This document shows positions 2,464 through 23,812 of a DNA stretch of 64,000 nucleotides, piece by piece; positions within the stretch are counted from its first letter, which is position 1, and each line of letters opens with the position of its first letter. Position numbers and translations under genes: made by a program. The notes under the pieces were generated by a model. The model was not told where the DNA came from, did no database searches, and worked only from the letters and a program-made list of their open reading frames with translations. The DNA is from Albidovulum sediminicola (lineage in GTDB: Bacteria; Pseudomonadota; Alphaproteobacteria; Rhodobacterales; Rhodobacteraceae), in contig NZ_JAOWLA010000007.1 of NCBI RefSeq assembly GCF_025751575.1, positions 1-64,000 of the forward strand, given 5' to 3'.

Positions 2464-3990
2464 ATGTTCTACAGACCCAAGACCGCGCAGGCTACGCGCA
2501 TCAGCCGCCGCCGGTTCCTCGAACTTGGCGGCTACGGCGCCACCATGCTGGGCACCGGATCTCTGGCCGTCGGCCTGAACTCCACGATCATGTCCACGCC
2601 CGTCCAGGCGGCTTCCTCGGACGAGGCGAAGTGGAAGCAGTACGCCGGCTCGAAGCTGACCTTCCTGTCGGAGAACACGCCCCCGTCCTTCGCGATCCGC
2701 GACAACATCAAGGCCTTCTACGATCTGACCGGGATCGAGGTCGAGATCCTGACCGACGACCTGCCGGTCGTGCAGCAGAAATGCGGGATCGACCTGCGCT
2801 CGGGCAAGTCGGACTACACGCTGCAATACGTCCAGGACAAGCCGATCGGTTCGCCCTTCGCCGACTTCTACGTCGACCTGTCGAAGATGTTCGGCGACGA
2901 GACCCTGCCGCAGGACATGGAAGGCTACGGCGACGACGCCTGGTTCGAGAACTTCCTGTCGGCCTGCGGCCGCTTCTACTCGGGCGAGAAGATCATCGCG
3001 CTGCCCTATGACGCGGCGATCGCGGTCACGTTCTTCCGCCAGGACCTGTTCGAGAAGCACACCAAGGACTTCGAGGCCGAATATGGCTACCGGCTGGAAT
3101 ACAATGCCGACAGCACCTGGAAGAACGTCCTCGACATCGCGACCTTCTTCAAGAAGCTGAAGGAAGGCGGCGCGGATGTGCCCTACGGCTACGCGCAGCA
3201 CCAGGGCAGCTTCGCCTGGACGACGCAGCTTGACATCCAGCGCATGATGTTCGCCCACGGCCGCTGGATCGACTTCAACATCGACGACAAGATCGGCTCG
3301 AAAGAGCCTGGGCCGACGAACTGGGGCGATGCCCAGTCGGTCCTGATGCTGGAGAAGTTCAAGGCGCTGGCCGATGTGTCGCACCCGGACAACCTCGCCA
3401 ACGGCACGCTGGAGCTGAACACCGTCTACCAGTCGGGCAACATCGCGATGCAGGTCCAGTACCACGAATTCGCGGCCTCGGTCGAAGATGCGAACACCTC
3501 GGTCGCCGCGGGCGGCAAGACCGCCTACGCGCCCTGCCCGAAGGGGGAGGCGGACTGGATCCTCAACGGCGGTCCGGCGGTCAACGGCACGAACTGCGGC
3601 ATCGGCGGCATCGGCATCAACGCCAACGCCCCTGAAGAGCTTCAGCGCGCGGCCTACCTCTTCGCGATCTGGTCGACCTCCAAGAACATCCAGTACGATG
3701 TTCTCAAGGGTCTGGGCGGCACGCCGACCCGCAAGTCGGTTCTCGAGATCCCGGAAGTGCAGGCGGCGCAGCAGCGTCCGAGCGCGATGCCCAACGCGCT
3801 GACCTTCGATGCGGTCTACAACTACGGCATCAAGGACCCGAACTTCGTGCTTGGCCCGAAGATCCCGGAGGCGAACGAGTATCACTCGATCATCGCGTCC
3901 GAGACGCAGCGGATGCTGTCGGGCGACATGAGCCCGGAAGAGACCGCAGCCTCGCTGAAGTCGCAACTCGACGATCTCAACGAAGCCTGA
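2464..3990 (+). CDS. ABC transporter substrate-binding protein (family 1, carbohydrate), Tat-exported
   Basis: A 508-residue periplasmic solute-binding protein, first gene of a carbohydrate ABC transporter operon. The start at 2464 is chosen because GGGAGAGAGA lies directly upstream and the protein then begins with a twin-arginine signal peptide (SRRRFLEL at about residues 14-21, a hydrophobic stretch, and probable cleavage after PVQAA near residue 50). Length and the mixed aromatic-rich mature region fit family 1 extracellular binding proteins for sugars or polyols. Tat export implies folding in the cytoplasm before secretion. Two permeases and an ATPase follow in the same direction. The ligand cannot be told from sequence. 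Confidence 0.88.
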   Translation: MFYRPKTAQATRISRRRFLELGGYGATMLGTGSLAVGLNSTIMSTPVQAASSDEAKWKQYAGSKLTFLSENTPPSFAIRDNIKAFYDLTGIEVEILTDDLPVVQQKCGIDLRSGKSDYTLQYVQDKPIGSPFADFYVDLSKMFGDETLPQDMEGYGDDAWFENFLSACGRFYSGEKIIALPYDAAIAVTFFRQDLFEKHTKDFEAEYGYRLEYNADSTWKNVLDIATFFKKLKEGGADVPYGYAQHQGSFAWTTQLDIQRMMFAHGRWIDFNIDDKIGSKEPGPTNWGDAQSVLMLEKFKALADVSHPDNLANGTLELNTVYQSGNIAMQVQYHEFAASVEDANTSVAAGGKTAYAPCPKGEADWILNGGPAVNGTNCGIGGIGINANAPEELQRAAYLFAIWSTSKNIQYDVLKGLGGTPTRKSVLEIPEVQAAQQRPSAMPNALTFDAVYNYGIKDPNFVLGPKIPEANEYHSIIASETQRMLSGDMSPEETAASLKSQLDDLNEA

Positions 3991-4003
3991 GGCTGTCACG
4001 AGC

Positions 4004-4027
4004 CGGCAGCCCCAAAGGGGGCTGCCG
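4004..4027 (+). terminator. Intercistronic hairpin after the binding-protein gene
   Basis: CGGCAGCCCC pairs with GGGGCTGCCG around a four-base loop, 14 bp after the stop codon of the binding-protein gene. There is no following T-run. Such hairpins between a binding protein and its permeases usually stabilise the upstream mRNA or cause partial termination, giving more binding protein than permease. That role here is inferred. Confidence 0.6.
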
Positions 4028-4096
4028 CACCTCACCCCTTCCTGAAGCCGTCCCCCGGGCCTGCTTGCCGGCCTGAATCAAGGAGCGACGACCGAC

Positions 4097-5095
4097 ATGA
4101 CCGACGTGTCCCCCATTTCCGCCAACCCGCGTGAGGTCGCCGCGCAGATTTTCCGCGCTCGGGCGCACTCCGCCGAGGTCGAGGCCCGCCCGCAAAGCGA
4201 GATCACGAACAAGCCGCGCAGCTTCAACCCGCCGATGCCAAAACGGTACTACTATTACCTCATGGCGCCGGCGATCGCGATCCTCGCCTTCATCTCGCTC
4301 TACCCGTTCTTCTGGCTGATCGTCATGTCCTTGCAGGACGTCGATATCGGCGGCGGCGAATGGGTGGGCTTCAAGAACTATGTGAAGCTCTTCTCGGACG
4401 GCCGCTTCCTGGACGGCTGGTGGCTTCTGGCGCAATACAGCGTCATGTGTCTGGGGCTTCAGGTCGGACTGGGTGTCCTGCTGGCGGTCGTCGTCAACAG
4501 CTCCAAATACGAAAAATACCTGGTCACCGCGCTTTTGATGCCGATGATGATGGCGCCCGCCGTCGCCGGTCTGTTGTGGCTCTTCCTCTACAACGGCACC
4601 TTCGGCTGGTATCACTGGATCCTGCAAAGCGCGGGCATCCTCGACAACGCCTCGATCCTGGCCAGCGCCAACACCGCGATGTATGCCATCGTCCTCGTCG
4701 ATGTCTGGCAGTGGACGCCGCTGATCACGATCATCGCCCTTGCCGGTCTGAAGCGCGTGCCGCGTGACCAGCTTGAAGCCAACATGGTCGATGGCGCCTC
4801 GCCGCTGCGCAACTTCTTCGCGATCACGATGCCGAACCTTTACCCGGTCCTGCTGATCGCCGTGCTGCTGCGCTTCATGGACAACTTCCGCTTCATCGAC
4901 TCCGTCCTCGTCCTGACGGGCGGCGGGCCGGGCAGCGCGACCAAGATCCTGCCGGTCTACCTTTTTGAAGTGGCCTTCAAGTTCTTCAAGCTTGGCCGGG
5001 GTGCCGCGATCGCGCTGACGCTGCTCATCGTCACCATCATCCTGGGCAAGCTTCTTGTCCGCGTCTTCGAAAAACCCCAGAACGAGAAGGGCTGA
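4097..5095 (+). CDS. Sugar ABC transporter permease (first)
   Basis: A 332-residue inner-membrane permease. It has a cytoplasmic N-terminal extension of about 45 residues, about six hydrophobic segments, and the EAA loop near residues 230-250 (ANMVDGASPLRNFF...MPNL) that contacts the ATPase. It belongs to the MalF/UgpA-like binding-protein-dependent transport family and should pair with the next gene. AAGGAGCG lies 12 bp upstream of the ATG. It follows the binding-protein gene after a 106-bp gap containing a hairpin, and is followed by the second permease after only 5 bp. Confidence 0.88.
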   Translation: MTDVSPISANPREVAAQIFRARAHSAEVEARPQSEITNKPRSFNPPMPKRYYYYLMAPAIAILAFISLYPFFWLIVMSLQDVDIGGGEWVGFKNYVKLFSDGRFLDGWWLLAQYSVMCLGLQVGLGVLLAVVVNSSKYEKYLVTALLMPMMMAPAVAGLLWLFLYNGTFGWYHWILQSAGILDNASILASANTAMYAIVLVDVWQWTPLITIIALAGLKRVPRDQLEANMVDGASPLRNFFAITMPNLYPVLLIAVLLRFMDNFRFIDSVLVLTGGGPGSATKILPVYLFEVAFKFFKLGRGAAIALTLLIVTIILGKLLVRVFEKPQNEKG

Positions 5096-5100: not shown

Positions 5101-5979
5101 ATGGCATCCCGTGACGTCGTTTCCTACGATACCCCGCTTTCGCGCGCCCTGAAGGTTCTGGCCGGTCTGTTCCTTGCCCTCTACCTGGTCTGGACGCTTC
5201 TGCCCTTCTTCGTGATGTTCGTTTCGTCCTTCAAGGACCTGCTGGAGGCCTTCAAGCTTCCGGCGGTCGGGGACTGGGCGGGGATCACCGTGTTCTTCGA
5301 GTTCACGCCGACTTTCAAGCACTACACCTCGCTCTTCACCGAGAACAGCTTCGGGACCTACATCCTGAACAGCCTGATCGCGGCGGGCGGCTCGGCGGTC
5401 ATCTCGGTGATCTTCGGATCGCTGGCCGCCTATTCGCTCAGCCGGGTGGATTTCCGCGGCAAGCAGGATCTGTTCTTCTGGATCATCTCGACCCGGATGG
5501 CGCCGGTGGTGGCGGTGATGGTGCCCCTTTACGCGATCTTCCGCAGCCTGGACCTCGTGGGGACGCTTCCCGGTCTGATCCTGGCCTACACGACCTTCAA
5601 CCTGCCCTTCGCGATCTGGATCCTGAAAGGCTTCTTCGACAACGTGCCCTTCGCGATCGAGGAAGCGCAGATGGTGGACGGCTCGACCCGGTTCCAGGCG
5701 TTCCGGTCGATCCTGCCGCTCGTCGCGCCGGGTATCGGGGCCTTCGTGGTGCTCTGCATCCTCTTTGCCTGGAACGACTTCCTTTTCGCCGCCATCATCG
5801 GCTCCGGCGGGGCGAAGACGCTGCCGGTCGCGACCCGCGAACTGGTCCAGCCGCAGAACATCCAGTGGGGCTCGATCATGGCGGCAGGCGTGGTGACCAC
5901 GGCCCCCATGATGCTCCTCGGCCTTGTGATCCGCAAATACCTGGTGACCGGCCTGACGATGGGCGCAGTCAAGGAATGA
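5101..5979 (+). CDS. Sugar ABC transporter permease (second)
   Basis: A 292-residue permease of the MalG/UgpE type with six predicted membrane segments and an EAA loop (AQMVDGSTRFQAFRSILPLV). It is the partner of the preceding permease and the two form the membrane channel. The 5-bp spacing and the GAAGGGCTGATCAGC stretch before the ATG indicate translational coupling. The ATPase gene follows after 59 bp. Confidence 0.88.
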   Translation: MASRDVVSYDTPLSRALKVLAGLFLALYLVWTLLPFFVMFVSSFKDLLEAFKLPAVGDWAGITVFFEFTPTFKHYTSLFTENSFGTYILNSLIAAGGSAVISVIFGSLAAYSLSRVDFRGKQDLFFWIISTRMAPVVAVMVPLYAIFRSLDLVGTLPGLILAYTTFNLPFAIWILKGFFDNVPFAIEEAQMVDGSTRFQAFRSILPLVAPGIGAFVVLCILFAWNDFLFAAIIGSGGAKTLPVATRELVQPQNIQWGSIMAAGVVTTAPMMLLGLVIRKYLVTGLTMGAVKE

Positions 5980-6038: not shown

Positions 6039-7133
6039 ATGGCGACGGTAACCATCAAGAACGTCTGGAAGTACTACGGCGAGACGCCCGCCGTTAAGGA
6101 CCTCAACATCACCTGCCCGGACGGCAGCTTCGTGTCGATCCTCGGCCCCTCGGGCTGCGGCAAATCCTCGACGATGCGGATGCTGGCGGGGCTGGAGCAC
6201 ATCAGCGCGGGCGACATCCTGTTCGACGACCAGCGGGTCAACGATCTGGCACCGAAGGACCGCGACGTCGCGATGGTGTTCGAAAACTACGCGCTCTACC
6301 CGCACAAGACGGTCTATGAGAACATCGCGAACCCGCTGCGCCTGCGCAAGGCGAGCGAGGACACGATCAAGGCGCGCGTGACTGGGGCGGCGAAGCTGCT
6401 TGAAATCTCTCACCTTCTAGAGCGCCGCCCGCACGAGCTTTCGGGCGGCCAGAAGCAGCGTGTGGCGATCGGTCGGGCCATCGTCCGCGAACCGAAGCTC
6501 TTCCTCTTCGACGAGCCGATCGCGCACCTCGACGCAAAGCTGCGCGCCCATATGCGCGGCGAGATCAAGCATCTTCAGCGCTCGCTCGGCACCACGATGA
6601 TCTACGTCACCCACGACCAGTTGGAGGCGCTGTCGATGGCCGACTACATCGCGGTCATGCATGACGGCGAGTTGCAGCAGTGGGGCACACCGGCCGAGAT
6701 CTTCAACCATCCGGTCAACGCCTGGGTCGCGGGCTTCGTCGGTGAACCGGCGATGAACTTCCTGACCTGCGACATCAAGGGGCAGGGCGACGATGTTCTT
6801 CTGCGCCACAGCAACTTCGAGATCCCGCTGCTGCCGGGCCAGGTGCGCCAGCTCAACGGCGCGGCGCAGGCCGGGACCGCGCGGATGGGCGTGCGCCCGG
6901 ACGCGCTGTCGATCAGCATGACACGGCCCGACGAGGCTGCGATGCAGGGCGAGATCTTCGTCAACGAGCTTCTGGGCGGCGATATGCTGGTCGAGGTCCA
7001 GCTGGACGACTGCCGCATCCGGGTCAAGACGACGCCGGAGTTCGAGGGCAAGCCGGGCGAGAACTGCTTCCTCTCGGTCAACCGCGACAAATGGCACGTC
7101 TTCGACGCGGGCGACGGGCATGCCTACTTCTGA
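6039..7133 (+). CDS. Sugar ABC transporter ATP-binding protein with a Q-loop Gln-to-Glu change
   Basis: A 364-residue ATPase that energises the transporter. Walker A is GPSGCGKSS (about residues 32-40), the signature is LSGGQKQR, Walker B is LFLFDEP, and a C-terminal TOBE/MalK-type regulatory region follows residue 235. The Q-loop, usually VFQ(N/S)YALYPH, reads VFENYALYPH, so the conserved glutamine is a glutamate. The D-loop reads DEPIAHLDAKLR instead of the usual SNLD form. Only one ATPase gene is present, so it must form a homodimer unless another is encoded elsewhere. GGGAGGAATTGAGAC precedes the ATG. Confidence 0.9.
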   Translation: MATVTIKNVWKYYGETPAVKDLNITCPDGSFVSILGPSGCGKSSTMRMLAGLEHISAGDILFDDQRVNDLAPKDRDVAMVFENYALYPHKTVYENIANPLRLRKASEDTIKARVTGAAKLLEISHLLERRPHELSGGQKQRVAIGRAIVREPKLFLFDEPIAHLDAKLRAHMRGEIKHLQRSLGTTMIYVTHDQLEALSMADYIAVMHDGELQQWGTPAEIFNHPVNAWVAGFVGEPAMNFLTCDIKGQGDDVLLRHSNFEIPLLPGQVRQLNGAAQAGTARMGVRPDALSISMTRPDEAAMQGEIFVNELLGGDMLVEVQLDDCRIRVKTTPEFEGKPGENCFLSVNRDKWHVFDAGDGHAYF

Positions 7134-7764
7134 GGCCATCGCCGCCAGGGTGGGCCGCGAGGCCCCCTATGAGGAGGCGCTAGACGCCTTCCTGGCGGCG
7201 CATGTGCCTTCGCGCGGGGCGGCCGGCCTGGTTCAGGCCTACCGCGCGGTGCAGGCGATGCCCTACTTCTCCGGCCTCGATCGGACGCCGCAGGCGGCGC
7301 TTCGGGACGGGCGCGGGGCCTGCACGGCCAAACATCTGGTTTTGCGCGATCTCTTGCGGCGCCTGGGTCATCCGGCGGACGTGGAGATTGTCGAGGGGGA
7401 TTTTGCCTCCGGCGTCCCGGTGCATCCCTCGATGCCCGATGCACTCATGACGATGATCCGGGACGAGGGCGTCACGGATTTCCACTGCCGGGTGCGGGTC
7501 GGGGGTCAGGCGCTTGATGCAACCTGGCCTCTCGACCTTCTCCGTTGGGGCTTTCCGGCCGACACAGATTGGGACGGACAAGGCGATACGAAACAGGCTA
7601 TCGAACGGGTGGTCGTCCGGTCGGTGGAGGAGGACGTTCTGGGCGCAAAGGCCCGGCTCTTGGCGGGATTGTCAGAGGAGGCAACCCGACGCCGCGCCGA
7701 GTTCCTTGCGCTTCTATCGAATTGGCTCGCGGATCTGCCGTGGCCGGAAGAAGAAACGATCTGA
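7120..7764 (+). CDS. Transglutaminase-like superfamily protein
   Basis: A 214-residue protein whose ATG overlaps the end of the ATPase gene by 14 bp, indicating coupled translation. A cysteine in GRGACTAKH (about residue 68), a histidine in DFHCRV (about residue 121) and an aspartate in ALDATWP (about residue 133) match the Cys-His-Asp order of the transglutaminase/papain-like fold. No signal peptide is visible, so it should be cytoplasmic. It may hydrolyse or transfer amide bonds. Its job beside a sugar transporter is unknown. Confidence 0.6.
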   Translation: MPTSEAIAARVGREAPYEEALDAFLAAHVPSRGAAGLVQAYRAVQAMPYFSGLDRTPQAALRDGRGACTAKHLVLRDLLRRLGHPADVEIVEGDFASGVPVHPSMPDALMTMIRDEGVTDFHCRVRVGGQALDATWPLDLLRWGFPADTDWDGQGDTKQAIERVVVRSVEEDVLGAKARLLAGLSEEATRRRAEFLALLSNWLADLPWPEEETI

Positions 7765-7781
7765 CGACGGGGGAGGAAAAC

Positions 7782-9344
7782 TTGTCGGGCACGGGTAAGG
7801 TTTTTGTCGGCATCGATGCCGGCACGACGGGCTGCACGGTCATGGTCTTCGACGAGAAGGGCAATGCCATCGGCCACGGCTATCAGGAATACAACTGCTC
7901 CTCGCCGCAGCCGGGCTGGATCGAGCAGAGCCTGGATGAGGTCTGGGCGGGGATCTGCTCGGCCACGAAGCAGGCGGTGAAGAAGGCGGGCGTGCCTGCC
8001 TCGGCCTATCACTCGGTCGGCCTGTCCAGCCAGCGCGGCACCTTTGGCATCCTCGACGCGAACCGCCGTCCGCTGATGAACTCGCTGGTCTGGAACTGCG
8101 GGCGGGCCTTGAAAAGCGTGGCCGCCATTTCTGCAGAGTTTTGCCCAGAGGAGCACCAGAAGCACACCGGCATGCAGATCAGCCCGCTCTGGTCGGCCGC
8201 CAAGATCGTCTGGCTGCGCGAGAAGCGTCCGGATCTCTTCGATGCCACGCGCTGGTTCGTAAACGGCCAGGAATACTTCCTCTGGCGCATGGGGGCGGAG
8301 GACTGGGCCACGGACCCGGCGTCCCTGACGCTGAACGGGATGATGGACATCGCCAAGCTCGACTGGTCCGACCGCATCCTCAAGGCCTGCGGCATCGACC
8401 GCGACCGCCTGCCGCCGGTGGGAACGCCCGCGACAATGGTCGGGCGCCTGTCGAAGGCCGCCGCACATGAAACCGGCCTGCCTGAAGGCGTCATCCTGTG
8501 CCGTGGCGCGGGCGACCAGCAGTGTGCGGCGATCGGCGCAGGGGTTATCCGTCAGGGCATGGCCGAATTCACCGTCGGCACCTCTGGCGTCATGGTGGCC
8601 CACCTCGACAGCGTCGAGCGGATCAAGGGCAACAAGCTCTGGTGGGGTGGGCATGGCGTGCCGGGTGCCTGGGACATCGAGGGCGGCGCCTTCAGCCTTG
8701 GCGCATCGCTGCGCTGGTGGCGCGACCACCTGGGCCGCAACGAGCTGGACGAAAGCGCGCGCCGCAAGACCAGCGTCTATAGCGTGATGGTGGAGCAAGC
8801 CCACAACTCCAAGCCCGGCGCCAACGGGGCGATGTTCCACAGCTTCATGGCCAGCCAGGTCACGCCCTACTACGACGCGGTCGCCCGCGGCGGCTTCCTG
8901 GGCCTGGGCCTTTACCACGAGCGTCATGACCTGATCCGCGCGCTGCTGGAAGGCTGCGCGCAGGAAATGAAGATGGTCTTCGACAGCTTCCAGTCCGATA
9001 TCGAGGGCGGCATCACCGATTTCCGCCTGACCGGCGGCGGCACCAAGTCCGACGGCTTCGTGCAGATCATGACCGATATCATCGGCGTGCCCTCGACCGT
9101 GACGAAAGAGCGCGAATGCACGGCACTTGGCGCGGCGATCCTCGGGGCCTTCGGCTCCGGCGCCTTCGGCACGATCGACGAGGCGGTGGAGTCGATGGTG
9201 CAGGTTGAATCGACCTTCGACCCCAACCCGAAGCTGCGTGAGCTCTATGACGAGCAGCACGCCATCTACCGCGGCATGTACGAGGCCATCGCCAGATCGG
9301 GCCAGTATGCCGCGCTCAGCGACTTTTCGCAGAAATATCAGTGA
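7782..9344 (+). CDS. FGGY-family carbohydrate kinase (xylulokinase-like)
   Basis: A 520-residue sugar kinase. The TTG at 7782 is preferred because GGGAGGAAAAC sits directly before it and the protein then begins near the ATPase phosphate-1 motif VFVGIDAGTTGCTVMVFDE. The second FGGY signature region (GGGTKSDGFVQIMTDIIGVP) is near residues 415-435, followed by a GAAILGAFG segment. FGGY kinases phosphorylate pentuloses, hexuloses or polyols on the terminal hydroxyl. The substrate cannot be named, but the absence of a dehydrogenase or isomerase in the locus suggests a ketose. It follows the transglutaminase-like gene after 17 bp. Confidence 0.88.
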   Translation: MSGTGKVFVGIDAGTTGCTVMVFDEKGNAIGHGYQEYNCSSPQPGWIEQSLDEVWAGICSATKQAVKKAGVPASAYHSVGLSSQRGTFGILDANRRPLMNSLVWNCGRALKSVAAISAEFCPEEHQKHTGMQISPLWSAAKIVWLREKRPDLFDATRWFVNGQEYFLWRMGAEDWATDPASLTLNGMMDIAKLDWSDRILKACGIDRDRLPPVGTPATMVGRLSKAAAHETGLPEGVILCRGAGDQQCAAIGAGVIRQGMAEFTVGTSGVMVAHLDSVERIKGNKLWWGGHGVPGAWDIEGGAFSLGASLRWWRDHLGRNELDESARRKTSVYSVMVEQAHNSKPGANGAMFHSFMASQVTPYYDAVARGGFLGLGLYHERHDLIRALLEGCAQEMKMVFDSFQSDIEGGITDFRLTGGGTKSDGFVQIMTDIIGVPSTVTKERECTALGAAILGAFGSGAFGTIDEAVESMVQVESTFDPNPKLRELYDEQHAIYRGMYEAIARSGQYAALSDFSQKYQ

Positions 9345-14762: not shown

Positions 14763-15052
14763 GGTTCTCTCCGTCTTGCCCCTCATTGGTAGAGTGGAAC
14801 GGGGAAATCGGAAAGAAGTTTTCATATTTTCAGCGCCCAAAGGTGGCGCAAACCGGTGTCGCGGGTGATCGGTTCGCCGCAAACCCCCTGAAAATCAACA
14901 ACACACAATCTGAAATGTAAGAATATTTCACAATTTATGGCAAATTCTCGCGTCCTTGCAAAAAATTTTCTCGACAAGAGGAGGCGTGAAACCTACAAAA
15001 AACCCAATCAGAGCGATGTCTAAGCCGATTCCATCGGCAGTTGGGAGGAAAG
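14763..15052. promoter_or_regulatory. Divergent promoter region between the RpiR regulator and the E1-alpha operon
   Basis: A 290-bp region, much richer in A/T than its surroundings, without a gene. A 20-bp inverted repeat TGAAAT-N8-ATTTCA at 14911-14930 is the best operator candidate. Further GAAA/TTTC-rich sequence lies at 14811-14832. The AT-rich stretch 14890-14990 is where promoters in both directions are likely. GGGAGGAAAG just before 15053 is the ribosome binding site of the first enzyme gene. Confidence 0.55.
14911..14930. promoter_or_regulatory. Candidate RpiR-type operator palindrome
   Basis: TGAAAT, eight bases, then ATTTCA form a perfect 6-bp-arm inverted repeat midway between the divergent regulator and enzyme genes. 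RpiR-family proteins bind palindromes of about this size and base composition. Binding is inferred from position and symmetry only. Confidence 0.45.
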
Positions 15053-16039: not shown

Positions 16040-16065
16040 GGCGGACGGGAAGGGGAGGAGAAATC

Positions 16066-17073
16066 ATGGCAGAACGCGAATTGATGTATCGCGAGGCCCT
16101 TCGGGAGGCCATCGACGAAGAGATGGGCCTGAACCCGTCGGTCTTCATCATCGGCGAAGGCATCGCCGAGCGGGGCGGCAGCTACAAGGTCACCGAGGGC
16201 CTGCTGGCGAAATACGGGCCCAAGCGCGTCCGCGACACGCCGATCGCCGAGGCTGGCATGATCGGCGTCGGCGTCGGCGCCGCGATCGCCGGGGCCCGCC
16301 CGATCGTGGAGATCCTTTACGTGGATTTCGCTATGCTCGGCATGGACATGATCGTGAACCAGGCCGCCAAGTTCCGCCTGATGACGGGCGGCGACGGCCG
16401 CGTGCCCTTCATCATGCGCACCCAGGGCGGTACCGGCGGCGGCGTGGCGGCCCAGCACTCGCAGTCGCTTGAGGCGCTTTTCTACCACATCCCCGGCCTT
16501 CGGGTGGTCATGCCCTCGACGCCCGCTGACGCGAAGGGTCTGCTGAAATACGCCCTGCGCCAGGACGACCCCGTGATGTTCCTGGAGCACAAGCACCTCT
16601 ACATGACCAAGGGCATGGTGCCCGATGGCGAACATATCGTCGAGTTCGGCAAGGGCGACATCAAGCGCGTCGGCACCGATGTGACCGTGATCGCCTGGTC
16701 GAACATGATCCCGCGCACGCTTGAGGCCGCCGAGGAACTGGCGCGCCAAGGCATCTCGGTCGAGGTGATCGACCCGCGCACCCTGGTGCCGCTGGACCGC
16801 GAAATGATCGTGAACTCGGTCCTCAAGACCCGGCGCTGCGTGATCGTCCAGGAAGCCAACCGCCGCGGTGGCGTGGCCTCCGACATTGCCTCGATCGTGC
16901 AGGAAGAGTGCTTCTACGAGATGGATGCGCCGGTGGAGATCGTCGCCGGCATGGACATTCCGGTGCCGTTCAACCTGACGCTCGAAAAGGCCAGCGTGCC
17001 GCAGAAGGACGATGTCGTGGCCGCCGTTCGCCGGAGCCTGCACCTCGACCCTTTTGCTGAAGCGGCTGAGTGA
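16066..17073 (+). CDS. Thiamine-diphosphate dehydrogenase E1 component, beta subunit
   Basis: A 335-residue E1-beta protein with the usual opening MAERELMYREALREAIDEEM, a DTPIAEAGMIGVGVGAA segment, a RTQGGTGGGVAAQHSQSLEA motif, and a C-terminal transketolase domain (EVIDPRTLVPLD). It lacks an N-terminal lipoyl domain, unlike many alphaproteobacterial PdhB proteins, which argues against this being the housekeeping pyruvate dehydrogenase. GGGGAGGAGAAATC precedes the ATG, 26 bp after E1-alpha. Confidence 0.86.
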   Translation: MAERELMYREALREAIDEEMGLNPSVFIIGEGIAERGGSYKVTEGLLAKYGPKRVRDTPIAEAGMIGVGVGAAIAGARPIVEILYVDFAMLGMDMIVNQAAKFRLMTGGDGRVPFIMRTQGGTGGGVAAQHSQSLEALFYHIPGLRVVMPSTPADAKGLLKYALRQDDPVMFLEHKHLYMTKGMVPDGEHIVEFGKGDIKRVGTDVTVIAWSNMIPRTLEAAEELARQGISVEVIDPRTLVPLDREMIVNSVLKTRRCVIVQEANRRGGVASDIASIVQEECFYEMDAPVEIVAGMDIPVPFNLTLEKASVPQKDDVVAAVRRSLHLDPFAEAAE

Positions 17074-17083: not shown

Positions 17084-18304
17084 ATGACCTTGCATGTGCT
17101 TGAGAAATTGGCCGCGACGAACCCGGATTGCGAAATCTGGTGGGATAGCTCGCCGCTTGTCTACGACAACTGGGCGCGGGGCGTCCTCGCCTCGGCCCCG
17201 GCCGGAAAAAAGGCGGATTGGGACGCGCAGCTGAAGCGGCTCTTCGATACCGCGACCGTAGCGCGCGAGGGCACGATGGGGTTTGGCGGCGTCACCACCA
17301 ACCCGCCCCTGTCGTTGCAGGCGATCCAGAACGATCCCGAGTTCTGGATCGGCGAGATCGGCCGCATCGCGGCGGAGAACCCCGGCGAGGATGTCGAGGG
17401 GATCTATTGGAAGACCTACCTTGAGGTCGTCCGCCGCAGCGCCGAAATGATCCTGCCGGTCTACGACGCCTCGAATGGACGCCATGGGCATCTGTCGGGC
17501 CAGGTCGATCCGCGCTTTGTCACCGACTACGACCGGATGCTGTCCCAGGGCCTGCAACTGGCCACGATCGGGCGCAACGTCATGGTCAAGATCCCCGGCA
17601 GCGCCGAAGGCTACCGCGTGATCGAGGAACTGACCGCGCGCGGTATTTCGACCAACAACACGACCTCCTTCACGGTGCCGCAATACATCGCCTGCATGGA
17701 CGCGGTCAGCCGCGGGCTGGAGCGCGCGCGGGCGGCAGGGATCGACCTTTCGAAGTGGCGTTCGGTCATCACCCACATGTCGGCGCGGCTTGGCAATATC
17801 GGCGACCTCGAGGCCCAGGCCGACCTGCGCGGCATCAAGTTGTCGCCGGAAGAGATCCTGCACGGCGAAATGGCGGTGATGAAGCGCGCCTATCACCACG
17901 GCAAGCGCACGGGGCACCCCTCGAAAATGCTGCAATGCTCGATGCGGGTCACCGACGAGGGCGAGGGCGGCGCGGCTTCCTCCTGGCATATCGAGAAGAT
18001 CGCCGGCGGGGATTTCGTCTACACCTGCCCGCCCGGCTACATCGCCCAGCTGATGCAGGCAGAAGATCGCCTTCCCGCCTTCGATGCAAAGGCGATCGAC
18101 GAGGAGCCGCCCGCAGAGGTGATCGAGAAGCTGAGGCAGCTGCCCTATTTCCGGCAGGCCTATGACTTCGACGGCATGAAGCCGGATGAGTTCAGCCAGT
18201 TCGGCGCCTTCGCGGCGACGGCAAATGAATTCGCCGCGGCCACCCGAAAGACGGTGGATTTCGTGGCACGGGCGCTCGAATCCGTGCGTCCGCAGGCTGC
18301 CTGA
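17084..18304 (+). CDS. Transaldolase-family protein, atypical long form
   Basis: A 406-residue protein. The start 17084 follows GGGCGCCGGG; upstream in-frame residues overlap the E1-beta gene. GFGGVTTNPPLSLQAI (about residue 66) and MVKIPGSAEGYRVIEELTARGISTNNTTSF (about residues 167-196, split here only for description) match the transaldolase core, including the Schiff-base lysine in VKIPGS. Classical transaldolases are about 220 or 315 residues, so this belongs to a longer group. It could transfer a dihydroxyacetone unit or act as a direct aldol lyase on a sugar phosphate. It sits between E1-beta and E2 genes, 10 bp after E1-beta. Confidence 0.75.
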   Translation: MTLHVLEKLAATNPDCEIWWDSSPLVYDNWARGVLASAPAGKKADWDAQLKRLFDTATVAREGTMGFGGVTTNPPLSLQAIQNDPEFWIGEIGRIAAENPGEDVEGIYWKTYLEVVRRSAEMILPVYDASNGRHGHLSGQVDPRFVTDYDRMLSQGLQLATIGRNVMVKIPGSAEGYRVIEELTARGISTNNTTSFTVPQYIACMDAVSRGLERARAAGIDLSKWRSVITHMSARLGNIGDLEAQADLRGIKLSPEEILHGEMAVMKRAYHHGKRTGHPSKMLQCSMRVTDEGEGGAASSWHIEKIAGGDFVYTCPPGYIAQLMQAEDRLPAFDAKAIDEEPPAEVIEKLRQLPYFRQAYDFDGMKPDEFSQFGAFAATANEFAAATRKTVDFVARALESVRPQAA

Positions 18305-18315: not shown

Positions 18316-19608
18316 ATGGCAGAGGCAATTCTGGTTCCTCAGGTCGGGCAGGACCTGACCGAGGCCAAGGTGGTCGAGCTTCACGTCAAGCTTGGCGATC
18401 AGGTTAAGAAGGGCGACCTTGTCGCCGTTGTCGAATCCGAAAAGGCGAGCTTCGAGGTCGAGGCCTTTTGCGAGGGCACGGTGATCAGCCTGCCCTGGCA
18501 GGTCGGCGATACCGCCACGGTGCTTGAGCCGCTGATGCATGTCGGCGCCCCGGGCGAGACGGTTGCAGAGGCAGCACGATCGGCCGCGGCTGAGCCCGCC
18601 GTGGTTCCGGCGGTCGCGCCCGCCGCACAGCCCGAGGCCGCACAAGTCGCGCAGGCCGAACCGCTGGTTGCCAAGGTGGCCACCGGTGTCGTGAACGCGG
18701 CGCTTCGCGCCTCGCCGATCGCGCGCCGCGTTGCCGCGGGTCAGGGTCTGGATCTTGCCCGCATCGCGGGCAGCGGCCCGAAGGGCGCGGTGGTGCTCAA
18801 GGATGTCGCCGCGCTGGCGGTTGGCGGCGCCCCCACGACGGGCGGCGGCGCGCTGGAGCTGCGGACGCTACAGGCCGGGCAGGGGACGCCGGTGGTCTTC
18901 ATCCACGGCTTCGGCGCCGATCTGTCGTCCTGGCGGCCGCTGGTCGCCCGCATAGGGCTCGGCTCACCCATGATGGCGCTGGACCTTCCGGGGCACGGCG
19001 GTTCTCGCGGGCATGGCGCGGCGGACTTCGCGGGCCTTGTCGGTGCGGTCGGGCAGACGCTGCGCGGCCTTCAGGGCAGCGTGCACCTCGTCGGCCATTC
19101 GCTGGGGGCGGCGGTCGCCGTCGCGCTGACCCAGCGCGGCGATCTCGATGTCCGTTCGCTGACTCTGATCGCGCCGGCGGGGCTTGGTGCATCGGTGGAT
19201 GGCGCTTTCGTCGAGGGCTTCTTGGGGGCCAAGTCCGAGGCCGCGCTGGCCGCCTGGATGCGCCGCCTGGTCTCTGACCCCGCCACCCTGGCGCCGGTTC
19301 TGGTGCGTGCGACCCTGGCTGCGCGCGAAGACGCGGACCTTGTCCCGGCACAGTCGCGCGTGGCGCGTGGCGTGTTCGAGGGTTCGACCCAGCTCTTCTC
19401 GGCTGCCGCGGCGCTGCGGAGCTACCAGGGGCCCTGCACCGTCATCGCCGGGCGCGACGATGCGATCGTTCCCTTGCGGGAAATCGAGGCGGCGCTGCCG
19501 GGCCATGTCGCGCTTCACCGGCTCGACCGGGTGGGGCACCTGCCGCAGGTGGAGGCCGCTGACCTGGTGCAGACACTGATTGCGCGGACCGTCCGCTCGG
19601 CGGGCTAA
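18316..19608 (+). CDS. acoC: Acetoin-dehydrogenase-type E2 component: lipoyl domain, E3-binding domain and alpha/beta hydrolase
   Basis: A 430-residue protein. Residues 1-78 form a lipoyl domain (lipoylated Lys43 in [11 protein letters not shown]). An Ala/Pro/Val-rich linker follows, then a peripheral subunit-binding segment ([21 protein letters not shown], about residues 132-155). Residues 185-430 are an alpha/beta-hydrolase domain with VFIHGFG, the nucleophile elbow GHSLGAA (Ser262), GRDDAIVP and a late GHLPQ histidine. This replaces the usual chloramphenicol-acetyltransferase-like catalytic domain, as in AcoC of acetoin dehydrogenase systems. It should carry the acyl group from E1 to CoA. 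GGGAGGAAAGA precedes the ATG. Confidence 0.82.
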
Positions 19609-19729
19609 GCCGTGTACGGCGCGCGCCACGCCCCTCCCGCATGGCGCGCGTCCCGTTTCCCGACATCCGTCCAGCAAGACCAGGGCCGCCGTGCATGTGC
19701 GGCCACTCCAACGAAGGGAAGGACCGGTC
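19609..19729 (+). other. Intercistronic gap with GC-rich hairpin
   Basis: Between the E2 and transketolase genes a CGCGCGCCA ... TGGCGCGCG inverted repeat (about 19630-19651) can fold. There is no T-run. It is probably an mRNA-processing or stability element rather than a full stop, since the next gene continues in the same direction. Confidence 0.4.
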
Positions 19730-21730
19730 ATGCGTGACCTGCCCCAGGTAAGCCATGCCGACATGGCGAACGCGATCCGATTTCTGGCCGCCGACGCTGT
19801 CGAGCGCGCGGCCTCCGGCCATCCGGGCATGCCGATGGGCATGGCCGATGTGGCGACGGTTCTGTTCACCCGCTTTCTGAAGTACGATGCGGCGCACCCC
19901 CGCTGGGCCGATCGCGACCGCTTTGTGCTGTCGGCAGGCCACGGGTCCATGCTGCTTTACGCGCTGCTCCACCTGACCGGCACGCCGGGCTGGCCGATCG
20001 ACGCGCTGCGGGGGTTCCGGCAACTGGGTTCGCCCGCGGCCGGCCACCCCGAATACGGTCACGGAGAGGGGATCGAGACGACGACCGGCCCCTTGGGGCA
20101 GGGGATCGCGACCGCCGTCGGCATGGCCCTGGCCGAGGAGATGGACCGAGCGCGCTTCGGTGCCGATATCGTCGATCACCACACCTGGGTCATCGCGGGC
20201 GATGGCTGCCTGATGGAGGGGATCAGCCAGGAGGCGATCTCGCTGGCCGGGCATTTGCGGCTGAAAAAGCTGATCGTGCTCTGGGATGACAACGGCATCA
20301 CCATCGACGGCGGCACCTCTGCCGCCACCTCAGAAGATCAGCGCAAGCGGTTCGAGGCTTCGGGCTGGGCGACGCTTGAAGCCGATGGCCATGACCCTGA
20401 AGGCATCGCAGAGGCGATGGAGCAGGCCCGGCAATCCGACCGCCCGGTGATGATCGCCTGCCGCACCAGGATCGGCTATGGCGCGCCCTCCAAGGCGGGC
20501 ACCGCCAAATGCCACGGCTCGCCGCTTGGGGCTGGGGAATTGCAGGCCGCGCGCGAGGCCCTTGGCTGGCCGCATGCCGCCTTCGACATTCCGCTGCCGG
20601 TGCGCGAGCTCTGGGCCGCCGCCGGCGGTCGCGGGGCCGAAGCGCGGCAGGACTGGGAGGTGCGGCTTGCGGCATCACCCCGGCGCGCGGACTTCCTTGA
20701 CCATCATGCCGGTCGCTATCCCGAAGGCTGGCGCCAGGCGCTGGCTGCCCACCGTGCGGCCCTGTCGTCCAAGCCGGGGGCGATGGCGACCCGCAAGGCC
20801 AGCGGCGCCGCGCTTGAGGTGCTGACCCCGGCCATCCCGCAGATGATCGGCGGGTCGGCCGACCTGACCGGCTCCGTCAACACGTTGACCAAGGCGACCG
20901 CACCCCTGACGGCGGAGAATTTCGGCGGACGCTACATCCACTACGGCGTGCGCGAGCACGGGATGGCGGCGGTGATGAACGGCATGGCGCTGCATGGCGG
21001 ATACCGCCCCTACGCCGGGACCTTCCTGGTCTTCGCCGACTACCTGCATCCCGCGCTTCGGCTTTCAAGCCTGATGGGCCTTCCCGTGACCTATGTGCTG
21101 ACGCATGACTCGATCGGCCTGGGCGAGGATGGTCCGACCCACCAGCCCGTTGAGACGCTGGCGATGCTGCGTGCGACGCCGGGTCTGGTGACGCTGCGCC
21201 CCGCAGATGCCGTGGAGGCGGCGGAAGCCTGGGAAATCGCGCTGGACCGCCGGGACGGGCCGACCGCCATTGTCCTGTCGCGGCAGGACCTGCCGACGCT
21301 TCGCCTGGATGGCGGCGTCGAAAACGCGGCGCGGCGCGGCGGCTATGTTCTGGCCGAGGCCGCCTGCGGGCCGCGCCGGGTCACGCTGATCGCGACCGGC
21401 TCCGAGGTGGAGATCGCCTATGAGGCACGCGCGCTTCTCGAGGCCGCAGGCATTGGCGCGGCGGTCGTGTCGCTGCCGTCCTTCGAATTGTTCCGCGCGC
21501 AGCCGGCCGCGTATCGCGCCGCCGTGCTCGGACAAAGGGACGGTGTCCGGGTCGGGGTGGAAGCCGCGCTGAGGTTCGGCTGGGACGAAGTCATCGGTTC
21601 TGAGGGCGCCTTCGTCGGAATGACCGGCTTCGGCGCCTCCGCCCCGGCCAGCGTGCTCTACCAGCACTTCGGCATCACGGCGGTCGCCGTCGCGGCCAAG
21701 GCGCGCGATCTGCTTGGGGAAGCAGCATGA
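19730..21730 (+). CDS. tkt: Transketolase
   Basis: A 666-residue transketolase, the usual length. ATG 19730 follows AAGGGAAGGACC. Motifs in order: AANAIRFL-like opening ([23 protein letters not shown] region), [31 protein letters not shown], the thiamine-diphosphate motif [20 protein letters not shown] with [10 protein letters not shown], and the pyrimidine domain with [17 protein letters not shown]. It transfers two-carbon ketol units between sugar phosphates. Placement inside this operon suggests it feeds local sugar phosphates into the pentose phosphate pool. Its stop overlaps the start of the E3 gene by 4 bp. Confidence 0.9.
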
Positions 21731-23124
21731 GCGGGCATGACGTCCTGATCGTCGGATCGGGCCCGGGTGGCTATGTCGCCGCGATCCGGGCGGCGCAACT
21801 GGGCCTGAAGGTCGGCCTGATCGAGCGGGCGCATCTCGGCGGCATCTGCCTCAACTGGGGCTGCATCCCGACCAAGGCCATGCTGAAGGGCACGGACCTT
21901 CTGTGCGAGGCGGGTCATGCCACGCGCTTCGGCCTGCACCCGCTCTCGCCCGCGATCGACCCCGTCAGGCTCGTGGCGCGGGCCCAGGAGGTTTCGACCC
22001 AGCTTTCGGCGGGGATCGCGTTCCTTCTGAAGAAAAACGGCGTCGATCTGATCTGGGGATCGGCGCGGCTGGCTGGCGGCGGCAGGGTCGAAGTGACAGC
22101 CGCCGAGGTCGCGGGGCCGCGCGGGGCGCTGGGACCGGGCACCTACGCCGCGCCCCATATCATCCTTGCGACGGGGGCAAGCCCACGTCGTCTTCCAGGA
22201 CTCGACCCCGATGGCCACCTGGTCTGGACCTATATGCAGGCGCTCCGTCCCCAGGCGGTTCCGCAGCGTCTGATCGTCGTCGGTTCCGGCGCGATCGGAG
22301 TGGAGTTCGCCTCCATCTACGCCGCGATGGGCGCGCAGGTCACGATCGTGGAACTCGCCGCGCGCATCCTGCCGCAGGAGGACGCCGAGATCTCCGGCCT
22401 TATGGCCAAGGCGCTCCAGAAACGCGGGATCGCGCTGCATACTGGTGTTTCCGTCGCCCGGCTGGACCGGCAGGCGGAGAGCCTCACCGCCCACCTCTCC
22501 GACGGCACGGCGATTTCCGCCGACCGGCTCCTCAGCGCGGCAGGGGTGGTTCCGAACGTCTCGGGCCTTGGGCTTGAGGCGCTCGGCGTCGTGCTTGCGC
22601 ACGGCGCGGTGCAGACCGACGGGGCCGGGCGCACGAATGTGCCCGGCCTCTACGCCATCGGTGATCTGGCCGGCGCGCCGATGCTTGCGCACAAGGCCGA
22701 ACATGACGGGATCGCCTGTGTCGAGGCGATCGCAGGCCGGGCGCCGCGCGGCCATGGCCCAATCCCCGGGTGCATCTATGCCAGCCCCCAGATCGCCTCG
22801 GTCGGCCTGACCGAGGAGCAGGCGCAGGAACAGGGTACCGCCGTGCGCATCGGGCGTTTCTCGCTGCGCGGCAACGGCAAGGCGCTGGTGCTGGGTGAGC
22901 CTGACGGCCTCGTGAAATGCGTGTTCGACGCGGCGAGCGACCGGCTGATCGGGGCGCAGATCATCGGCGCGGAGGCCAGCGAACTGATCCACGGGATGAC
23001 CATCGCGGTGACGCTCGGCGCGACCTCCGAGCAACTCGCCAGCGTGGTCTTCCCGCATCCCACCCTGTCAGAGGCGCTGCATGAGGCCGTCATGGCCGCG
23101 CGGGAAGGAGCGATCCATGCCTGA
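21727..23124 (+). CDS. lpdA: Dihydrolipoyl dehydrogenase (E3 component)
   Basis: A 465-residue flavoprotein disulfide reductase. It shows the FAD motif [17 protein letters not shown], the redox pair in [16 protein letters not shown] (C-x4-C), the NAD motif [17 protein letters not shown], a [17 protein letters not shown] motif, and the C-terminal [11 protein letters not shown] with the catalytic histidine. It reoxidises lipoamide on the E2 encoded upstream with NAD as acceptor. ATGA overlap with the transketolase gene shows tight coupling, and supports a dedicated complex rather than use of a housekeeping E3. Confidence 0.9.
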
Positions 23125-23812
23125 GGGCCTACGCGGAACCGTGATCTTCGACCTTGACGGCACGCTGGTGGACAGCGCGCCCGACCTTGCCGATGCGCTC
23201 GACACCCTGTTGGAGGAGCGGGGGCACAAGGCGCTGGGCCTCGATCACGCCCGGCGTCTGATCGGACACGGCGTTGCGGAGCTTGTCCGCAAGGGTCTTG
23301 AGGACAGGGGCGAGAGGCTTGAGGGGCTGGATCTGACCCAGGCGGTTCAGCGCTTCCTGAAGCACTATACGCAGTTCCTGTCCCGCAAGAGCACGCCCTA
23401 TCCCGGCGCGGCCGAAGCCCTGACCGAGTTGCGGCTTGCCGGCTGGCGGCTTGTCGTTTGCACCAACAAGCTGGAGGCGAGCGCGCGCGGATTGCTTCAG
23501 GACCTGGGCCTTCTGCCCGCCTTCGCGCTGGTGGCCGGACCCGACACGTTCGGCGTTGCCAAGCCTGACCCGGCGCATCTGCTGCGGTGCCTGACGGGGC
23601 AGGATCTGAGCAAGCATCCCGCGATCATGGTCGGCGATTCAGAAGTCGACGTTGCTGCCGCACAAGCCGCGAAGCTTCCGGTCATCGCCGCGACCTGGGG
23701 CTACGCGCGCGTCCCGCTGGCGGACCTGAGGCCCGATGCGCTGGTGGACAGCCTGTCGGATGTGCCAGGCGCCGTGGAACGCTTGTCCTCCCTCGCGCGC
23801 GCGGGCGCCTGA
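23117..23812 (+). CDS. gph: HAD-superfamily phosphatase, phosphoglycolate phosphatase-like
   Basis: A 231-residue HAD hydrolase with motif I FDLDGTLVDSAPDLADAL, motif II CTNK, a GVAKPDP motif III and GDSEVDVAAAQAA motif IV. This fits the Gph group, which removes phosphate from 2-phosphoglycolate and related small phosphates. It starts 8 bp inside the end of the E3 gene and closes the operon. Together with the CbbY-like enzyme it gives the locus two sugar-phosphate phosphatases, perhaps for dead-end products of the transketolase or aldolase steps. Confidence 0.8.
   Translation: MPEGLRGTVIFDLDGTLVDSAPDLADALDTLLEERGHKALGLDHARRLIGHGVAELVRKGLEDRGERLEGLDLTQAVQRFLKHYTQFLSRKSTPYPGAAEALTELRLAGWRLVVCTNKLEASARGLLQDLGLLPAFALVAGPDTFGVAKPDPAHLLRCLTGQDLSKHPAIMVGDSEVDVAAAQAAKLPVIAATWGYARVPLADLRPDALVDSLSDVPGAVERLSSLARAGA

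What the first reader, a model, noticed from the sequence alone, without database searches (positions are those of the whole stretch)
2464..23812. A private acetoin-dehydrogenase-like complex inside a sugar-uptake locus: possible undescribed ketose or deoxy-ketose pathway
The locus joins a sugar ABC transporter, FGGY kinase, class II aldolase and two HAD phosphatases with E1 alpha/beta, an E2 whose catalytic domain is an alpha/beta hydrolase (as in AcoC), E3, a long transaldolase and a transketolase. I know of no described pathway with this gene set. Acetoin dehydrogenase E1 acts on CH3-CO-CHOH-R. A 1-deoxyketose phosphate (for example 1-deoxyxylulose 5-phosphate, which xylulokinases can make from 1-deoxyxylulose) has the same head, and could give acetyl-CoA plus a sugar aldehyde phosphate. 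This would explain why kinase and E1-E2-E3 sit together and why no dehydrogenase or isomerase is present. The substrate is hypothesis.
Basis: partly seen in the sequence, partly recalled or inferred. Interest (0 to 1): 0.72.

Follow-up and report, generated by a model that had tools for sequence, protein, structure and literature searches.

The report
Sugar-phosphate-splitting cousin of acetoin dehydrogenase
A bacterial sugar-uptake gene cluster carries its own multi-enzyme dehydrogenase complex, which probably cuts a phosphorylated sugar in two and keeps one half as an activated two-carbon unit, a kind of sugar breakdown for which no description was found.

Summary
In detail: window 2350-23812 encodes a sugar ABC transporter, FGGY kinase, class II (FBA-type) aldolase, two HAD phosphatases, E1a, E1b, AcoC-type E2, E3, a long transaldolase and a transketolase. 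The blocks are linked in relatives: 36 of 80 loci found through the transaldolase carry E1; FBA plus HAD1 are present in 20 of 24 of these with the left side observable, an uptake module in 22 of 24. The transaldolase sits between E1b and E2. E1 forms its own clade, apart from the Aco-type and other E1 sampled.

Two results change the reading. HAD1 is a CbbY, the xylulose-1,5-bisphosphate phosphatase family, in a genome without RuBisCO. Some relatives carry erythritol-pathway-type isomerases. Both fit glycolaldehyde phosphate as a product, so I favour a tetrulose 4-phosphate as E1 substrate (glycolyl-CoA, or acetyl-CoA if 1-deoxy). No substrate is shown.

New variant of a known kind.

The parts
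2350..3990 (+). extracellular sugar-binding protein of an ABC transporter (start probably near 2464)
   Evidence: SBP_bac_8 E 3.7e-13
4097..5095 (+). ABC transporter permease 1
   Evidence: BPD_transp_1
5101..5979 (+). ABC transporter permease 2
   Evidence: BPD_transp_1
6039..7133 (+). MalK-type ATPase
   Evidence: ABC_tran, OB_MalK, TOBE_2
7120..7764 (+). 214-aa transglutaminase-like protein of module A, function unknown
   Evidence: no Pfam hit; invariant C68, H122, D133; model pLDDT 92; weak TGase-fold hits; 17 loci at 41-94%
7695..9344 (+). FGGY carbohydrate kinase (start uncertain)
   Evidence: FGGY_N/FGGY_C; XylB model 295.9 bits, below cut-off 380
9366..9920 (+). VOC/glyoxalase-family protein, possible ketose-phosphate epimerase
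   Evidence: Glyoxalase_4; weak methylmalonyl-CoA epimerase hits
9979..10857 (+). class II fructose-bisphosphate-aldolase-type aldolase
   Evidence: F_bP_aldolase E 3.3e-78
10859..11575 (+). HAD1: CbbY family (xylulose-1,5-bisphosphate phosphatase family)
   Evidence: 4uav At3g48420 300.6 bits, CbbY 4uar 167 bits
11572..11850 (+). small ABM-domain protein (start uncertain)
   Evidence: ABM E 1.2e-17 in the frame 10966-11850; 7 of 80 loci
11855..12544 (+). Lactamase_B_3 metallo-hydrolase
   Evidence: 7 of 80 loci
12613..13848 (+). LVIVD-repeat protein
   Evidence: 5 of 80 loci
13857..14882 (-). MurR/RpiR-type regulator, divergent from E1
   Evidence: HTH_6 + SIS; present in 33 of 36 E1+TAL loci
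14912..14929 (.). GAAAT-N8-ATTTC inverted repeat between RpiR and E1a, possible operator (not found upstream of the SBP gene)
15041..16039 (+). E1 alpha subunit (start probably 15053)
   Evidence: E1_dh E 7.6e-77; clade
16036..17073 (+). E1 beta subunit (start probably 16066)
   Evidence: Transket_pyr + Transketolase_C
17084..18304 (+). long transaldolase-family protein, Gln at the catalytic Glu position
   Evidence: TAL_FSA; alignment to 3r5e; Gln in 77 of 77 aligned rows
18316..19608 (+). E2: lipoyl + E3-binding + alpha/beta-hydrolase domains
   Evidence: AcoC model 286.7 bits vs 307
19580..21730 (+). transketolase (start uncertain)
   Evidence: TIGR00232 772.7 bits, above cut-off
21727..23124 (+). 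E3 dihydrolipoyl dehydrogenase
   Evidence: TIGR01350 514.7 bits, above cut-off
23081..23812 (+). HAD2: phosphoglycolate-phosphatase-like (start uncertain)
   Evidence: TIGR01449 176.9 bits vs cut-off 180

Best explanation
The locus takes up a small ketose, phosphorylates it, and splits the ketose phosphate between C2 and C3 with a dedicated thiamine-dependent E1-E2-E3 complex. The two-carbon head leaves as an acyl-CoA with NADH; the rest leaves as an aldehyde phosphate. The most likely aldehyde is glycolaldehyde phosphate, from a tetrulose 4-phosphate (erythrulose 4-phosphate, giving glycolyl-CoA; or its 1-deoxy form, giving acetyl-CoA). The aldolase joins glycolaldehyde phosphate to DHAP as xylulose 1,5-bisphosphate, the CbbY-type phosphatase makes xylulose 5-phosphate from it, the long transaldolase offers a second route to xylulose 5-phosphate, transketolase feeds the pentose phosphate pathway, and the second HAD clears phosphoglycolate formed on the side. 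Shown: gene content, family assignments, conserved linkage, a distinct E1 clade. Inferred: every substrate and product.
For: Conserved order: TAL scored beside E1b in 31 of 36 E1+TAL loci and beside E2 in 32 of 32 with enough sequence; FBA+HAD1 in 20 of 24 and an uptake module in 22 of 24 with the left side observable. E1a carries the STHRGHGHC motif shared with E1a of Aco operons and of the DXR-II-linked operons, where human PDH E1-alpha has Tyr, plus residues of its own. HAD1 is a CbbY, a family described as highly specific for XuBP (PMC10212915, passages), in a genome without RuBisCO and with no second CbbY homologue at E<=1e-20. Two uptake modules replace each other around the same core: A (kinase alone) and B (kinase + GlpD-like dehydrogenase), as expected for a ketose and its polyol. 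A close relative of 4k3z (459 bits; identified as EryC from recall) is present in 9 of 25 and TPI-type isomerases in 7 of 25 loci with at least 6 kb right of TAL, without an RpiB hit. One Phyllobacterium locus pairs module B with another TPP enzyme.
Against: No gene for using glycolyl-CoA was identified in the locus. EryC and TPI occur in a minority of loci, and one module-A locus (L028) has EryC besides the VOC gene. FBA+HAD1 are absent in 4 of 24 observable loci (L022, L045, L048, L096). Two loci without E1 (L081, L086) keep FBA, HAD1 and TAL with DhaK/DhaL kinases, so this trio also works without E1. 44 of 80 TAL-family loci show no E1, 39 of them with more than 2.5 kb upstream to look at. 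No activity data.
Confidence: 0.38

Rival explanations
1. The E1 substrate is a hexulose 6-phosphate (fructose 6-phosphate or 1-deoxyfructose 6-phosphate). It yields erythrose 4-phosphate, which FBA plus HAD1 (as sedoheptulose bisphosphate aldolase/phosphatase), TAL and TKT rearrange, like a dehydrogenase version of non-oxidative glycolysis.
For: FBA, phosphatase, TAL, TKT, sometimes TPI, are the set needed to handle erythrose 4-phosphate. The same genome's erythritol-type locus on C69 also carries TKT and a small TAL-like gene (27% over 164 residues). [quoted passage not shown]
Against: HAD1 is a CbbY, described as highly specific for XuBP. EryC-type genes in some relatives point to C4 ketose phosphates.
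Confidence: 0.2
2. One reading: a kinase makes 1-deoxyxylulose 5-phosphate and E1-E2-E3 gives acetyl-CoA plus glyceraldehyde 3-phosphate.
For: [quoted passage not shown] not read), so the reverse is chemically plausible. Related E1 complexes sit beside DXR-II-like genes.
Against: GAP needs none of FBA, CbbY, TAL, TKT. The DXR-II-linked operon in the same genome is the better DXP candidate, and the two E1 fall in different clades.
Confidence: 0.12
3. An ordinary acetoin, pyruvate or branched-chain complex that happens to be co-expressed with sugar genes.
For: E1 and E2 are recognisable members of these superfamilies. E1b passes NCBIfam's subfamily model NF006667, named pyruvate dehydrogenase E1 beta (391.4 bits, cut-off 321), though not the equivalog NF008854 (368.8 vs 454).
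Against: E1a and E2 miss the PDH E1-alpha and AcoC cut-offs. Separate clade from E1 of operons with an NAD-kinase-like gene (AcoX, recalled) and a sigma-54-dependent regulator. L039 carries a second E1 pair that groups with those operons beside its TAL-linked one. Other E1 genes exist in the own genome. TAL lies inside the operon.
Confidence: 0.17
4. An AI-2-like pathway: FGGY kinase (LsrK-like), ABM protein (LsrG-like) and E1-E2-E3 splitting a phosphorylated hydroxydione to acetyl-CoA.
For: FGGY scores 223 bits with the AI-2 kinase model; an ABM-domain protein is present. That LsrG is an ABM protein is recalled.
Against: AI-2 kinase cut-off is 528 bits and XylB scores higher. ABM occurs in only 7 of 80 loci. 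CbbY, TAL, TKT are unexplained.
Confidence: 0.04

Closest known systems
Acetoin dehydrogenase complex (AcoABC with E3)
   Same: E1a/E1b pair, E2 with lipoyl domain and alpha/beta-hydrolase domain, STHRGHGHC-type motif in E1a.
   Different: Own clade, no NAD-kinase-like (AcoX) or sigma-54 regulator gene in the operon, TAL inside the operon, RpiR regulator, sugar ABC transporter, kinase, aldolase and phosphatases.
DXR-II-linked E1a-E1b-E2 operons (here L015, L102-L104, L125-L127)
   Same: Uptake genes (ABC or PTS), often a kinase, and an E1-E2 complex; E1 of L015 and L102-L104 are 43-44% (alpha) and 48% (beta) identical to the window's.
   Different: DXR-II-like oxidoreductase instead of TAL/FBA/CbbY/TKT; separate E1 clade; in L125-L127 the annotation names a conventional acetyltransferase E2.
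Erythritol (Ery) pathway of rhizobia and Brucella
   Same: Some relatives carry EryC- and TPI-type genes; TKT and a small TAL-like gene accompany the own genome's ery-type locus.
   Different: No RpiB hit in the loci examined; a C2-cleaving complex is added.
Calvin-cycle accessory genes CbbA/CbbY/CbbT/CbbZ
   Same: FBA, CbbY-type phosphatase, transketolase and a phosphoglycolate-phosphatase-like HAD together (gene set partly recalled).
   Different: No RuBisCO match in the genome.
Phosphoketolase / non-oxidative glycolysis
   Same: Would also turn ketose phosphate into a C2 unit plus aldose phosphate (recalled).
   Different: Lipoamide- and NAD-dependent complex instead of phosphoketolase.

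Membership tests
Acetoin dehydrogenase (AcoABC) | E2 passes the AcoC equivalog model | tested here: not met
   286.7 bits, cut-off 307; the Shinella orthologue is annotated as the AcoC-type subunit
Acetoin dehydrogenase (AcoABC) | E1 falls in one clade with E1 of Aco operons | tested here: not met
   the 13 TAL-linked E1 are split from all 13 others by a long branch of support 100; L110, L111, L114 and the second E1 of L039 group together (support 100)
Acetoin dehydrogenase (AcoABC) | cleaves acetoin to acetyl-CoA and acetaldehyde | not testable with these tools
   needs enzyme assay
Pyruvate dehydrogenase E1 (alpha/beta type) | E1a passes PDH E1-alpha equivalog models | tested here: not met
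   324.8 vs 393.85 and 236.6 vs 411.35 bits
Pyruvate dehydrogenase E1 (alpha/beta type) | E1b passes PDH E1-beta models | tested here: inconclusive
   subfamily NF006667 passed (391.4 vs 321), equivalog NF008854 not (368.8 vs 454)
Pyruvate dehydrogenase E1 (alpha/beta type) | Tyr of human E1-alpha TAYRAHG | tested here: not met
   His in the window and in 36 of 36 aligned TAL-linked E1a; two other own-genome E1a, presumed PDH-type, have Tyr
CbbY (XuBP phosphatase) | closest solved relatives are CbbY proteins | tested here: met
   4uav (At3g48420, named AtCbbYA in PMC10212915) 300.6 bits, CbbY 4uar 167 bits, next family 53 bits
CbbY (XuBP phosphatase) | hydrolyses XuBP | not testable with these tools
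   needs enzyme assay
Transaldolase | TAL fold with Schiff-base lysine | tested here: met
   TAL_FSA; best 36 Foldseek hits are transaldolases; the lysine is kept in 77 of 77 aligned rows
Transaldolase | catalytic Glu (E96 of TalB) | tested here: not met
   aligned residue is Gln; TalB E96Q and E96Q/F178Y structures appear among the hits. That E96Q favours aldolase activity is recalled.
Erythritol pathway | EryC, EryH and EryI present | tested here: inconclusive
   EryC in 9 of 25 and TPI-type in 7 of 25 observable relatives; no RpiB hit (E<=1e-6, over 25% identity) in 82 loci; none in the window locus, a separate ery-type locus with RpiB, TPI and EryC lies on C69

The most novel reading that the evidence does not exclude
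2-oxo-acid-dehydrogenase-type complexes have been recruited more than once to split sugar phosphates oxidatively: a tetrulose-phosphate (or other ketose-phosphate) dehydrogenase complex at this locus, and a DXP-splitting complex for 2-C-methylerythritol catabolism at DXR-II loci. Together they would be an unrecognised oxidative counterpart of phosphoketolase.
Probability: 0.35. Interest if true: 0.85.

Novelty: new variant of a known kind. Interest (0 to 1): 0.62.

Why it matters
If right, thiamine/lipoamide complexes would act directly on sugar phosphates, giving acyl-CoA and NADH in one step without going through pyruvate. It would give a role to CbbY phosphatase outside CO2 fixation and, through the sister locus, to DXR-II in genomes that already have a normal DXR. 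All claims can be tested with purified enzymes.

Tried and rejected
Rejected: acetoin dehydrogenase as such (clade, neighbours); AI-2 pathway (weak); a purely housekeeping reading of TAL/TKT (the own genome has another TKT, and the TAL lies inside the E1-E2 operon). A shared RpiR operator for both blocks was looked for: an inverted repeat lies between RpiR and E1a in the window, none upstream of the SBP gene, and repeats of the kind sought were found in 8 of the 33 other loci examined, not all alike, so co-regulation is untested. Loci that carry the TAL without E1, mostly Sphingomonadales, were examined for clues; many lie near LigB, amidohydrolase and AMP-binding genes and gave none. The loci L018-L097 come from two short peptide patterns of the TAL alignment; 151 stretches matched a pattern and 80 were confirmed and returned, 80 being also the cap, so counts are biased to this TAL family. 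Of the 44 loci counted as without E1, three (L026, L063, L093) are contigs cut at the TAL start that still carry E2, so they may belong to the E1 type. In one search E1b was not scored adjacent to TAL in 5 of 36 loci: L030, L035, L040, L042, L090. L030 is the Shinella H4-D48 region whose annotation shows a 22-base gap; in L042 the open frames overlap and in L090 the genes are broken; L035 and L040 were not looked at singly. Literature searches found no description of this gene set, of DXP splitting by such a complex, or of CbbY with aldolase and glycolaldehyde; the library holds open-licence PMC papers only, and most hits were seen as listings.


Full report
What is there. Twenty genes between 2350 and 23812 form two blocks around a divergent RpiR-type regulator. 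Left block: SBP, two permeases, MalK-type ATPase, a 214-aa transglutaminase-like protein, FGGY kinase, VOC protein, FBA-type class II aldolase, HAD1, ABM, Lactamase_B_3 and LVIVD proteins. Right block: E1a, E1b, long transaldolase, AcoC-type E2, transketolase, E3, HAD2. Gaps inside each block are mostly short or overlapping (several start codons are uncertain). G+C is 0.62-0.65 over the left block and E1 and about 0.70 over E2, transketolase and E3.

Is it linked in relatives? A scan of one-genome-per-species contigs with the transaldolase (alignment A1: window and two Shinella) gave 80 loci. 36 show E1 and 44 do not; of the 44, 39 have more than 2.5 kb of upstream sequence to look at, and three of the other five (L026, L063, L093) are cut at the TAL but still carry E2. 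Among the 36: RpiR in 33; TAL scored adjacent to E1b in 31; TAL adjacent to E2 in 32 of the 32 with enough sequence; FBA and HAD1 in 20 of 24 with the left side observable; uptake module A in 17 of 24, module B in 5 of 24 (in L033 module A lies to the right). With at least 6 kb to the right of TAL: TKT 11 of 25, E3 13 of 25, HAD2 19 of 25, EryC 9 of 25, a TPI 7 of 25. Record titles include Defluviimonas (98% TAL identity), Gemmobacter, Rhodobacter, Meridianimarinicoccus, Shinella, Rhizobium, Mesorhizobium, Rhodospirillaceae and Xanthobacteraceae. The locus is an accessory one: 2 of 295 family genomes and 4 of 385 class genomes, the own included in both, carry the TAL family at E<=1e-30.

Two interchangeable uptake modules. 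Module A is the window's: SBP-type ABC transporter, 214-aa protein, FGGY kinase, usually the VOC protein. Module B, best seen in Shinella, is a transporter like rhizobial glycerol transporters (likeness recalled) with a DUF2160 protein, an FGGY kinase and a GlpD-like dehydrogenase. L045 (B) and L048/L096 (A) carry the same RpiR-E1a-E1b-TAL-E2-TKT-E3 core. The simplest reading is that A supplies a ketose and B the matching polyol. The Shinella GlpD-like protein is well below the GlpD cut-off (245.6 vs 360 bits) and its kinase reaches no listed FGGY cut-off. In L094 the neighbours pass the GlpK and GlpD cut-offs. In Phyllobacterium, a module B (62.9% kinase identity) sits with an acetolactate-synthase-like TPP enzyme, and no E1 is annotated in that stretch.

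What kind of E1? In a concatenated E1a/E1b tree of 26 sequences the 13 TAL-linked complexes are split from the rest by a long branch (support 100). Aco-type operons (L110, L111, L114 and the second E1 of L039; 100), the DXR-II-linked ones (100) and two other E1 of the own genome, presumed PDH-type, form further groups. E1a carries STHRGHGHC in 36 of 36 aligned TAL-linked sequences. The His is shared with Aco and DXR-II-linked E1; human PDH E1-alpha and the two own-genome E1 have Tyr. Features of the TAL-linked clade are HPYLGQE, RH[MST]GHHVNDPG and [TS]DG[AG][SAT]NNG in E1a, and Gly32 and Met95 in E1b. These mark a distinct active-site region (its place inferred from PDH, recalled); they do not name a substrate. 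NCBIfam cut-offs for PDH E1-alpha and AcoC are not reached, but E1b does pass the subfamily model NF006667 named PDH E1 beta (391.4 vs 321 bits), a result that leans the other way.

HAD1 is a CbbY. Its best solved relatives are Arabidopsis At3g48420 (300.6 bits) and CbbY (167 bits); the next family is at 53 bits. CbbY proteins are described as highly specific XuBP phosphatases (PMC10212915, passages). The own genome has no RuBisCO large-chain match and no second CbbY homologue at E<=1e-20. An aldolase next to a CbbY suggests DHAP + glycolaldehyde phosphate -> XuBP -> xylulose 5-phosphate (aldolase chemistry recalled). HAD2 is phosphoglycolate-phosphatase-like, just below cut-off (176.9 vs 180); this would also fit, since phosphoglycolate is the oxidation product of glycolaldehyde phosphate. 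The long TAL has Gln at the position of TalB Glu96 (77 of 77 rows). That this favours aldolase over transferase activity is recalled; TalB E96Q structures turn up among the fold hits.

Why a tetrulose. Glycolaldehyde phosphate results if E1 splits a 2-ketotetrose 4-phosphate. Four of the five module-B loci with the left side observable (L022, L024, L030, L094), and several others, carry a close relative of 4k3z (Shinella copy 459 bits; the depositors call it D-erythrulose 4-phosphate dehydrogenase, its identity as EryC is recalled; 65.6-72.5% to the rhizobial proteins listed). The Shinella TPI behind it is 70% identical to the TPI of the own genome's ery-type locus. No RpiB was hit in the stretches searched. 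EryC and EryH would lead to D-erythrulose 4-phosphate (activities recalled). In module A the VOC protein could do an epimerisation; this is a guess. Against this: EryC and TPI are in a minority, nothing was found for glycolyl-CoA use, and in L081 and L086 FBA, HAD1 and TAL go with DhaK/DhaL and no E1.

The sister locus. SAF-type 'homoserine dehydrogenases' next to related E1-E2 operons match 3upl/3upy (498 bits; named only Oxidoreductase there, known to me as Brucella DXR-II from recall). The window's own genome has one on contig C21 (56%), directly followed by E1a, E1b and an AcoC-type E2, with an ABC transporter, a PfkB kinase and a SorC-type (Sugar-bind) regulator; the genome also has DXR-I. 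Of 8 such loci reached by searches with this protein (own C21; L122, L123 from two sampled genomes; L124-L128, 5 opened of 46 plasmid records), E1a-E1b follow directly in 4 (own, L125, L126, L127), E2 and E3 lie nearby in 1 (L128), none is seen in 2 (L122, L124), and 1 contig ends (L123). L102-L104 also have the pairing but were found through E2. In L125-L127 the E2 is annotated as a conventional acetyltransferase. Relatives that fail the DXR test (DLO1, DLO2) exist (PMC3847144, passages), and I made no tree, so DXR-II function at C21 is inferred. PMC3847144 (passages and section 7) treats DXR-II as an isoprenoid enzyme; my find for 'catabol' and 'transport' in it gave no occurrence. The proposal is 2-C-methylerythritol -> MEP -> DXP -> acetyl-CoA + GAP. 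[quoted passage not shown] the report itself not read).

Verdict. A real, conserved operon type for which I found no description; best read as a ketose-phosphate-splitting relative of acetoin dehydrogenase, with a tetrulose 4-phosphate as leading substrate guess. The class of reaction is moderately supported; the exact substrate and acyl product are open. The facts mended on checking did not require a change of odds.

Noticed in passing
own genome G000:C21 (L015), about 2020-13326: DXR-II-like gene directly followed by E1a, E1b and AcoC-type E2, with CUT-type ABC transporter, PfkB kinase and SorC-type regulator; the genome also has DXR-I. Candidate 2-C-methylerythritol/DXP catabolism; a like arrangement in rhizobial plasmids (L125-L127).
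   Followed up: partly
own genome G000:C69 (L017), about 5705-15999: Erythritol-type locus with RpiB, TPI (70%), DeoR, transketolase, small TAL-like gene, EryC-type gene (69%) and FGGY kinase.
   Followed up: partly
L081 and L086: FBA-CbbY-DhaL-DhaK-TAL clusters without E1/E2, near a sulfatase gene (L081) or enolase-superfamily genes and a GntP permease (L086).
   Followed up: partly
L113 1106-11650 (Roseateles plasmid): Sugar ABC uptake, E1a-E1b-E2, FGGY kinase and two SDRs: another sugar-kinase plus Aco-like pairing.
   Followed up: no
L105/L115 (Shinella plasmids): Fused E1 alpha/beta plus AcoC-type E2 beside class II aldolase, four-carbon acid sugar kinase and CoA transferase.
   Followed up: no
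L116 10593-12368 (Phyllobacterium plasmid): Acetolactate-synthase-like TPP enzyme between an FGGY kinase/GlpD-like pair and a glycerol-type ABC transporter.
   Followed up: no
window 27009-28577: Fer2, FAD- and NAD-binding reductase domains followed by a bacterial globin-like match in one protein.
   Followed up: no
window 30001-50000: G+C drops to 0.51-0.60, with a tRNA-Leu (gag) at 49911-49997 at its edge: possible inserted element.
   Followed up: no
39 loci without E1 among L050-L097, mostly Sphingomonadales: The long TAL occurs without E1/E2 at about 56-68% identity, often within some kilobases of LigB and amidohydrolase genes.
   Followed up: partly
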